Assembly: GCF_000968135.1 (NCBI RefSeq)
Contig: NZ_FO538765.1
Coordinates: forward strand, 1,937,819 to 2,001,818
DNA length: 64,000 nucleotides
Origin: Magnetospira sp. QH-2
GTDB taxonomy: Bacteria > Pseudomonadota > Alphaproteobacteria > Rhodospirillales > Magnetospiraceae
Direction: 5' to 3'
Position 1 is the stretch's first letter; every line of letters starts with the position of its first letter. The translations under genes were made by a program, and so were the position numbers. Below are positions 7,092-30,998 of the stretch, piece by piece. The notes beneath the pieces are model-generated. The model was not told where the DNA came from, did not search any database, and saw only the letters and a list, made by a program, of their open reading frames with translations.

Positions 7092-7284
7092 CAGGCGTAC
7101 TAACCGGTTTGTATTAATGCCAATAGCTAGGGCGAATACGAAGAACTCACTCAATGGTATTTAGGTAACTACTTAATATATCAAAATGCACTTTACAATT
7201 GGGTGTGCTTTCTAGCCCATGTCGGGTCCAATCGGACCCGTTGAGCACGCCCGACCCTATTGGAATCAATGGCGACGCGATCTA
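7092..7284. other. Intergenic stretch, AT-rich then a small hairpin
   Basis: No credible coding frame. The left part (to about 7200) is AT-rich. At 7223-7240 a 7-bp perfect stem CGGGTCC/GGACCCG encloses a 4-nt loop, with no T-run on either side. The region ends at the TA that flanks the repeat element beginning at 7285. Confidence 0.5.
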
Positions 7285-7438
7285 ACAGGCTGCCGAAAAA
7301 ATCCGATTTCGAGCGTGTGGCGACACATGCTTCGACAAGCTCAGCATGAGGGCTTTTGAATTTTCAAGGTGTTCGCCTCACTCTGAGCTTGTCGAAGGGC
7401 GAGATGGGCCGTAGGACAACACTTTTCCGGCAGTCTGA
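7285..7438 (+). repeat. Non-coding TA-flanked repeat element, copy A (MITE-like)
   Basis: A 154-bp element nearly identical, after reverse-complementing, to 30845-30996. The outer ends are imperfect inverted repeats (ACAGGCTGCCGAAAA against TCAGACTGCCGGAAAA). Inside are 15-bp perfect inverted repeats, CTTCGACAAGCTCAG at 7330-7344 and its complement at 7383-7397. Both ends abut a TA dinucleotide (7283-7284 and 7439-7440), as expected of a TA-target duplication. It contains no ORF. It sits 12 bp beyond the ynfA stop. The resemblance to miniature IS630/Tc1-type elements is inferred from the TA flanks and terminal repeats. Confidence 0.85.
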
Positions 7439-7451
7439 TAGGTTGACGCCA

Positions 7452-29552: not shown

Positions 29553-30845
29553 ATGTCGCGAGACTCGAAGAACCCGGAAACCATCGTGCTGCACGGCGGC
29601 TATCGCCATGACCCGGATACCGGGGCGGTCGCGGTACCTATATATCAGACCACGTCCTATCAATTCCGGGATGCGGAGCATGCGGCCAACCTGTTCGCGC
29701 TGAAGGAATTGGGCAATATTTACACCCGCATCATGAACCCCACAAACGATGCCCTGGAGATGCGGCTTGCCGCGTTGGAAGGCGGCGTTGCCGGGTTGGC
29801 GACGGCCTCCGGACAATCGGCGGCCACCTTGAGCATTCTCAATTTGTGTGAATCTGGCGACAATTTCGTCAGTTCCACGGATCTGTACGGCGGAACTTGG
29901 AATCTGTTTGCCAATACCCTTTCCTCCATGGGGATCGAATGCCGGTTCGTGGACCCCACCGATCCGGAAAACTTCCGCAAGGCCGTGGATGACCGCACCC
30001 GCTGCTTTTTCGCCGAGACCCTACCCAATCCGAAACTTCAGGTCTTTCCGATTCAGGAAGTGGCTGATATCGGTAAGGAATTCGGCATTCCGTTGCTGGT
30101 TGATAACACGGCGTCTCCGATCATCTGCCGCCCATTGGACCATGGCGCTGCGGTGGTCATCTATTCGACCACCAAGTACATTGGCGGCCATGGCACGTCC
30201 ATCGGCGGCATGATCATTGATGGCGGCCATTTCGACTGGGAGTCCAGCGGCGACCGCCTCCCCACGCTCAATCACCCCGATCCCAGCTACCACGGTGCCG
30301 TCTGGACCGAGGCGGTCAAGCCTTTGGGGCCGATCGCCTTCGCCATCCGTGCCCGGGTGGTCTTGCTGCGCGATATCGGCGCCGCCATGAGCCCGTTCAA
30401 CGGATTCCAGTTCATTCAAGGCCTGGAAACCCTGCCGCTGCGCATGCGCGCCCATTGCCAAAACGCTCAGGCCGTGGCCGACTTCTTGAGTGGTCATCCG
30501 AAGGTCACCAAGGTGATTTATCCCAGTCTGCAAGAGGGCGAAATGCGCCGTCGGGCCGATACCTACCTAAAGGGGGGGCTCGGTGGCCTGCTGGGCTTTG
30601 AACTGGAGGGGGGCATGGACGCCGGTCGTCAGTTCATCGATGGATTGGAAATGTTCTACCACGTGGCCAATATCGGCGATGCCCGGAGCTTGGCCATCCA
30701 TCCGGCCAGCACCACTCACTCACAGCTCACCGATGATGAAAAAGAGGCCACTGGCGTCTCCGCAGGGTATGTGCGGCTGTCCATTGGTATCGAGCATATT
30801 GACGATATCATTGGCGACCTGACCCAGGCATTGGACAAGGTCTAA
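29553..30845 (+). CDS. metY: O-acetylhomoserine sulfhydrylase / aminocarboxypropyltransferase
   Basis: 430 residues of the Cys/Met-metabolism PLP family. PIYQTTSYQF, YTRIMNPTNDALE, ASGQSAATLSILNL, LLVDNTAS and the PLP-lysine motif YSTTKYIGGHGT are all present, as is the SLAIHPASTTHSQL end motif. The length and the extra loops near 225-265 are those of MetY, which makes homocysteine from O-acetylhomoserine and sulfide. AGGGGAG lies before the ATG. The stop codon TAA shares its TA with the boundary of the repeat element that follows. Confidence 0.92.
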   Translation: MSRDSKNPETIVLHGGYRHDPDTGAVAVPIYQTTSYQFRDAEHAANLFALKELGNIYTRIMNPTNDALEMRLAALEGGVAGLATASGQSAATLSILNLCESGDNFVSSTDLYGGTWNLFANTLSSMGIECRFVDPTDPENFRKAVDDRTRCFFAETLPNPKLQVFPIQEVADIGKEFGIPLLVDNTASPIICRPLDHGAAVVIYSTTKYIGGHGTSIGGMIIDGGHFDWESSGDRLPTLNHPDPSYHGAVWTEAVKPLGPIAFAIRARVVLLRDIGAAMSPFNGFQFIQGLETLPLRMRAHCQNAQAVADFLSGHPKVTKVIYPSLQEGEMRRRADTYLKGGLGGLLGFELEGGMDAGRQFIDGLEMFYHVANIGDARSLAIHPASTTHSQLTDDEKEATGVSAGYVRLSIGIEHIDDIIGDLTQALDKV

Positions 30846-30996
30846 CAGACTGCTGAAATAGTGTTGTCCTACGGTCCGCCTCGCCCTTCGACAAGCTCAG
30901 GGTGAGGCTAACATGTTGAAAGTTCAATGGCTCTCATGCTGAGCTTGTCGAAGCATGTGTCGCCACAGGCTCGAAATCGGGCTTTTTCAGCAGCCC
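30845..30996 (-). repeat. Non-coding TA-flanked repeat element, copy B (MITE-like)
   Basis: A 152-bp element, the reverse complement of copy A (7285-7438) with few differences. TA flanks at 30843-30844 and 30997-30998. Internal 15-bp inverted repeats at 30886-30900 and 30939-30953. The terminal repeats share CTGCTGAAA. With its flanks it exactly fills the space between the stop codons of metY and the convergent acyltransferase gene, and could form a large cruciform or act as a terminator for both. Confidence 0.85.
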
Positions 30997-30998
30997 TA

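What the first reader, a model, noticed from the sequence alone, without database searches (positions are those of the whole stretch)
7285..7438. Two inverted copies of a TA-flanked non-coding element with double inverted repeats
7285-7438 and 30845-30996 are near-identical in opposite orientation. Both are bordered by TA, have imperfect terminal inverted repeats sharing CTGCYG, and carry a 15-bp internal inverted repeat (CTTCGACAAGCTCAG). There is no ORF. TA duplication and terminal repeats are what a miniature IS630/Tc1-type element would show. Sequence similarity is high, so spread is probably recent, and another genomic copy may encode the transposase.
Basis: partly seen in the sequence, partly recalled or inferred. 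Interest (0 to 1): 0.6.

Follow-up and report, generated by a model that had tools for sequence, protein, structure and literature searches.

The report
IS5-type MITE targeted by RNA-guided IS
The two repeats are copies of a short passenger transposon with IS5-family ends, present about 80 times in this genome, and its ends are the fixed landing site of a separate insertion sequence that appears to find them with a small guide RNA: a clear new example of known kinds of mobile DNA.

Summary
Both window copies (7286-7437 and 30846-30997) belong to a 152-bp non-coding repeat with about 80 copies in this 4.05-Mb genome, probably alphaproteobacterial. It is a MITE, but not of IS630/Tc1 type. Its ends, YTAR|CAGGCTGCTGAAAAA, are those of full-length IS5-family elements in other genomes of the order, and the duplicated target is the 4-bp YTAR, with TA as its centre. 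No autonomous partner was found here, and copies have diverged (93% pairwise), so the family is probably dormant. The inner double hairpin is a palindromic repeat widespread in the order.

Beyond the finding: this MITE is the landing pad of an IS110-family (IS1111-group) element of 1389 bp with 46 copies. All 46 right-hand junctions, and the 40 clearly readable left-hand ones, lie at one position in the MITE terminal repeat, TTTTTCAG|IS|CAGCCTG. Its 3' non-coding region predicts a guide-RNA loop with GCAGGCTG and CTTTTCAG, matching the two halves of that site. Across 17 elements, guides fit their own flanks better than swapped flanks (p = 1.7e-6).

Each part is a known kind; the combination resembles IS4321/IS5075 in Tn21 ends and IS1111 in Coxiella QMITE2.

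The parts
7282..7285 (+). left target duplication CTAA (YTAR) of MITE copy A
   Evidence: Sequence; YTAR statistics
7286..7437 (+). MITE copy A, 152 bp, both terminal repeats uninterrupted
7286..7300 (+). left terminal inverted repeat (CAGGCTGCCGAAAAA); unoccupied target of the IS1111-group element
7423..7437 (-). right terminal inverted repeat (TTTTCCGGCAGTCTG on the + strand)
7330..7397 (.). internal double hairpin, arms 7330-7351 and 7376-7397; palindromic repeat widespread in the order
   Evidence: relatives; fold z = -6.4
7438..7441 (+). right flank ATAG, decayed target duplication of copy A
30846..30997 (-). MITE copy B, 152 bp, uninterrupted
30842..30845 (+). target CTAA next to copy B; its TAA (30843-30845) is the stop codon of the Cys/Met-metabolism PLP enzyme gene 29553-30845
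30886..30953 (.). internal double hairpin of copy B, arms 30886-30906 and 30933-30953

Best explanation
The repeat is a MITE: a 152-bp passenger that an IS5-family (DDE) transposase once moved in trans by binding its CAGGCTGCTGAAAAA ends and inserting it into YTAR sites, duplicating the 4 bp. The core is a double-hairpin palindromic repeat of the order captured between IS5 ends. The transposase gene was not found in this genome, so the MITE is probably immobile now. Its end sequence has become the programmed target of an IS1111-group element: a guide RNA from the 3' non-coding region of that element pairs with CAGGCTG on one strand and with the CTGAAAA half on the other, and the DEDD recombinase inserts the circular element between TTTTTCAG and CAGCCTG in a fixed orientation. 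Shown here: copies, ends, target duplication, IS5 relatives, insertion position, guide match. Inferred: trans-mobilisation, RNA expression, the recombination step, and that the insertion disables the MITE end.
For: About 80 copies. Same ends on full-length IS5-family elements: L081/L183 (1.4 kb; transposase NF033581, E = 3.6e-76), L184, L185, L188 (1315 bp, CTAG/CTAG) and L191, with exactly CTAACAGGCTGCTGAAAAA. YTAR duplication: in other genomes 13 of 20 pairs exact, shuffled mean 6.8, none of 5000 shuffles as good; own genome, outer-left equals inner-right base p = 0.0008, inner-left equals outer-right p = 0.027. IS1111-group element: NF033542 E = 5.8e-74, PF01548 + PF02371, subterminal inverted repeat TAATCGAG, 246-nt 3' and 111-nt 5' non-coding regions; 46 of 46 right junctions in CAGCCTG of the MITE end, 40 clear left junctions after TTTTTCAG or its one-base variants. 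Guide loop GCAGGCTG...CTTTTCAG scores 14 of 16 against own flanks, 0 of 16 swapped flank pairs reach it, and own versus swapped over 17 elements gives p = 1.7e-6. The order of the two guides agrees with that reported for IS1111 seekRNAs (PMC11187229).
Against: No expression or transposition data. No close relative with empty sites is held, so MITE movement is inferred from ends, copies and target duplication. Many own-genome copies lack an exact duplication, which fits age but also other histories. Full-length IS5 relatives have the ends but different interiors, so the actual source element is not identified. Several of the more distant IS1111 relatives show no guide match by the simple score (L105, L177, L168, L171).
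Confidence: 0.88

Rival explanations
1. IS630/Tc1-type MITE inserting into TA.
For: TA lies at both ends of many copies.
Against: All full-length elements found with these ends encode IS5-family transposases. The bases on either side of TA are also duplicated.
Confidence: 0.03
2. A palindromic REP/BIME-like extragenic repeat whose spread depends on the hairpins (for example through a RAYT transposase), not on the terminal repeats.
For: The double hairpin alone is widespread in the order, with compensatory changes in the stems by eye, and folds strongly (z = -6.4).
Against: In this genome the repeat is bounded by IS5-type ends and YTAR duplications. Other genomes carry 148-218 bp elements with the same ends and different interiors, so the ends define the mobile unit.
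Confidence: 0.08
3. The MITE is a current functional element (bidirectional terminator or sRNA source) kept by selection at gene ends, and its abundance is adaptive.
For: 26 of 97 MITE flanks have a long reading frame ending in the TAA/TAG of the target, against 28 of 194 in the other frames (p = 0.009). Copy B lies between two convergent genes.
Against: YTAR always contains a stop codon, so insertion there spares the gene; survivorship explains the pattern. No expression data.
Confidence: 0.15

Closest known systems
MITEs of the IS5 family (IS5 group, YTAR target)
   Same: Terminal repeats identical to IS5-family elements, 4-bp YTAR duplication, no coding capacity, high copy number
   Different: Core is a double-hairpin palindromic repeat; no autonomous IS5 partner found in the same genome
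IS4321/IS5075 (IS1111 group) in the terminal repeats of Tn21-family transposons (cited in PMC11187229)
   Same: IS1111-group element inserted at a fixed position and orientation in the terminal inverted repeat of another transposon
   Different: Here the target is the end of an IS5-type MITE, and 46 insertions lie in one chromosome
IS1111 in QMITE2 of Coxiella burnetii (PMC5896051)
   Same: A multicopy MITE is the hot spot for an IS1111 element (20 of 21 copies there)
   Different: There the target is a GTAG REP within a different MITE; here it is the IS5-type terminal repeat itself
Bridge RNA / seekRNA of IS110 and IS1111 elements (PMC11208160, PMC11187229)
   Same: 3' non-coding region with a loop whose two short guides match the two target strands, in the order reported for IS1111 seekRNAs
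   Different: Only predicted here; donor-loop assignment (ACAGAAG...CGCCAcAT) is tentative

Membership tests
IS5-family MITE | Terminal inverted repeats shared with autonomous IS5-family elements | tested here: met
   L081/L183, L184, L185, L188, L191
IS5-family MITE | 4-bp YTAR target duplication | tested here: met
   13 of 20 exact in other genomes; own genome correlated but eroded
IS5-family MITE | No transposase gene, dispersed multicopy | tested here: met
IS5-family MITE | Mobilised in trans by an IS5-family transposase | not testable with these tools
   No autonomous copy found in the genome; needs experiment
IS5-family MITE | Empty orthologous sites in close relatives | not testable with these tools
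   No genome of the same genus is held
IS630/Tc1-type MITE | 2-bp TA duplication only, and ends shared with IS630 elements | tested here: not met
   Flanking bases also duplicated; elements with these ends are IS5 family
IS1111 group (IS110 family) | DEDD transposase with Transposase_20 domain | tested here: met
   NF033542, PF01548, PF02371
IS1111 group (IS110 family) | Subterminal inverted repeats and long non-coding region downstream of tnp | tested here: met
   TAATCGAG 7 bp from the left end and 6 bp from the right end as drawn here (8 bp, shorter than the usual 11-13); 246 nt 3' against 111 nt 5'
IS1111 group (IS110 family) | Guide RNA with segments complementary to both target strands | tested here: met
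   Sequence match and swap test; RNA itself not shown
REP/BIME (RAYT-associated) | GTAG/GGAG-headed hairpin and a RAYT transposase | not tested
   No GTAG/GGAG head seen by eye; no RAYT search made

The most novel reading that the evidence does not exclude
A lineage of IS1111-group elements in this order repeatedly programs its guide RNA to the terminal repeats of IS5-like non-autonomous elements. This gives RNA-guided hyperparasites that spread on, and shut down, passenger transposons. Besides the 46 copies here, two relatives about 50% identical, in other genomes (L155, L162), lie at the matching position of AGGCTGTTGAAAAAC-type ends, and their guides fit.
Probability: 0.45. Interest if true: 0.55.

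Novelty: new member of a known kind. Interest (0 to 1): 0.42.

Why it matters
The genome is a natural target-specificity experiment: one nearly invariant guide RNA (37 of 39 copies identical over the loop) and dozens of diverged target copies, occupied and empty, in one chromosome. It can show which target bases a natural IS1111 guide tolerates. It also dates two layers of mobile DNA: an older MITE (93% identity) overrun by a recent IS1111 element (99.8%).

Tried and rejected
IS630/Tc1 family: rejected on ends and target duplication. A composite or alternative MITE terminus (CAATCCCTGACTGCTCGATTACCGCCAT), first taken for a second end type: it is the left end of the IS1111-group element. Autonomous parent in the own genome: protein search empty, and no pair of free ends at IS length other than IS1111-split copies; two solitary ends (L043, L046) have no transposase. 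Rfam: only sub-threshold microRNA matches to the hairpin. Literature search with the hairpin sequence: nothing. Naming the organism: its own record is withheld from the named collection.

Full report
Observation. The two window copies are real. With a 4-bp target they are 152 bp each, at 7286-7437 (+) and 30846-30997 (-). The own genome (4.05 Mb, 2 contigs) holds many more: about 40 long matches among those scored, 83 forward and 83 reverse hits of the hairpin arm CTTCGACAAGCTCAG with at most one mismatch (each intact copy has one of each; reversed control 3 and 0), and 43 + 43 end sequences. That is about 80 copies.

Anatomy. Aligned copies give the consensus YTAR|CAGGCTGCTGAAAAAGTCCGATTTCGAGC ... 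double hairpin ... GGACAACACTTTTTCAGCAGCCTG|YTAR. The arms CATGCTTCGACAAGCTCAGCATGAGG and CCTCACCCTGAGCTTGTCGAAGGGCGAGG form a long hairpin. The fold of window copy A has z = -6.4. The hairpin part alone occurs in many genomes of the order without these ends, with stem changes that look compensatory by eye. So the mobile unit is a palindromic repeat captured between transposon ends.

Which family. A pattern scan for the end found it in 62 of 297 genomes of the order. One pair lies 1.4 kb apart (L081) and encloses a 381-aa transposase: NCBIfam IS5_4, E = 3.6e-76, above cut-off; Pfam DUF772 + DDE_Tnp_1. A protein search in the order gave further IS5-family elements with such ends: L184, L185, L188 and L191, the last with the exact consensus CTAACAGGCTGCTGAAAAA. 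In 20 elements from other genomes the 4-bp flanks are identical in 13 (CTAG/CTAG, CTAA/CTAA, TTAG/TTAG; shuffled mean 6.8, none of 5000 shuffles as good). In the own genome the duplication is eroded but still detectable at both outer bases (p = 0.0008 and 0.027). The target is therefore YTAR, not TA alone, and the element is an IS5-type MITE. No transposase of this type was found in the own genome, and copies are 92.7% identical pairwise, so it is probably old and dormant.

The second element. About half of the first alignments had one end replaced by a foreign sequence. This is the left end of a 1389-bp element with an IS110-family transposase (NF033542 E = 5.8e-74; PF01548, PF02371). It has subterminal inverted repeats TAATCGAG and a 246-nt non-coding region after the gene, as in the IS1111 group (PMC11187229). 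A pattern for its right end finds 46 copies. All 46 are followed by CAGCCTG of a MITE end, apart from one-base variants and two with a 3-bp repeat (AAG) at the junction. The 40 clearly readable left ends are preceded by TTTTTCAG or a one-base variant; one more is degraded, and the rest are disrupted. Left and right MITE ends are both used, always with the 5' side of the transposase gene towards the MITE interior. Copies are 99.8% identical, so this spread is recent.

How it finds the site. The 3' non-coding region folds into a stem-loop holding GCAGGCTG and, across a small inner hairpin, CTTTTCAG. The first is complementary to the top strand CAGCCTGY, the second to the bottom strand of TTTTTCAG with one mismatch. 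The order, top-strand complement first, is the one reported for IS1111 seekRNAs. Of 16 positions 14 match; none of 16 swapped flank pairs from relatives does as well. Over 17 elements with both junctions, own flanks beat swapped flanks (mean 12.8 against 11.0, p = 1.7e-6). In L155, L157, L175, L101 and L162 both guides can be read off directly. The more distant relatives fit less well by this simple score.

Other genomes. L155 and L162, relatives at about 50% identity in two other genomes, sit in AGGCTGTTGAAAAAC-type ends, and short elements with such ends occur in both genomes. Targeting of this end type may therefore have arisen more than once or be old in the lineage.

Context. In 26 of 97 MITE flanks a long reading frame ends exactly in the TAA or TAG of the YTAR target, against 28 of 194 for the two other frames (Fisher p = 0.009). 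Window copy B shows this: the stop codon of the PLP-enzyme gene 29553-30845 is the TAA of its CTAA, and a hexapeptide-transferase gene converges from the other side. Since YTAR contains a stop codon on both strands, insertion there leaves the proteins intact; survivorship is enough to explain it.

Known or new. MITEs of IS5 type, IS1111-group guide RNAs (PMC11208160, PMC11187229), IS1111-group elements in transposon ends (IS4321/IS5075 in Tn21, cited in PMC11187229) and IS1111 in a MITE (Coxiella QMITE2, 20 of 21 copies, PMC5896051) are all known. I found no report of this pair. It is a new member of known kinds, with unusually clean target evidence.

Noticed in passing
L057, L059, L060, L051; next to copies in L008, L011, L021: A second MITE-like repeat of about 165 bp with ends GAGGCGGATTTAAAAGTATCC, inserted at TTA inside some copies of the first MITE and also found alone beside others.
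   Followed up: partly
window 7220-7284; also L017, L050, L052, L058, L154: A third palindromic repeat (GTCGGGTCCAATCGGACCCG...GATCTAR, about 100 bp) abuts window MITE copy A and is inserted at a YTAG site in the 5' region of some IS1111-group copies.
   Followed up: partly
L060, L149, L150, L153, L204: Several IS1111-group copies carry, at the same YTAR site upstream of the transposase gene, the end of another insertion sequence (…GAGTCCTGAGCCTAR) with a transposase C-terminus (KQRNLIERMFGRLKDWRRIATRYDRCAHTFMSAICIAATVIFWL).
   Followed up: no
L011, L036, L038, L039-L042, L044, L045, L047, L054-L056, L058: A subfamily of the MITE has an extra stretch of about 22-26 bp in the right hairpin arm (CCTCATCCCGAGCTTGTCGAGGGACG), which repeats the palindrome.
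   Followed up: no
L155, L162 (genomes G034, G097); L207, L212: IS1111-group relatives inserted in AGGCTGTTGAAAAAC-type ends, and short elements bounded by such ends in the same genomes.
   Followed up: partly
L156, L175 (one genome): Two IS1111-group copies share the left flank GGGGTCAG but differ in the right flank; only L175 has a guide that fits both sides, which hints at guide drift within one genome.
   Followed up: partly
L015, L033: Two MITE copies are flanked on both sides by copies of a short palindrome (CGCCGCATGGGCACCATGCGGCG; GGGGCGTCTAGGGGCGCCCC) instead of YTAR.
   Followed up: no
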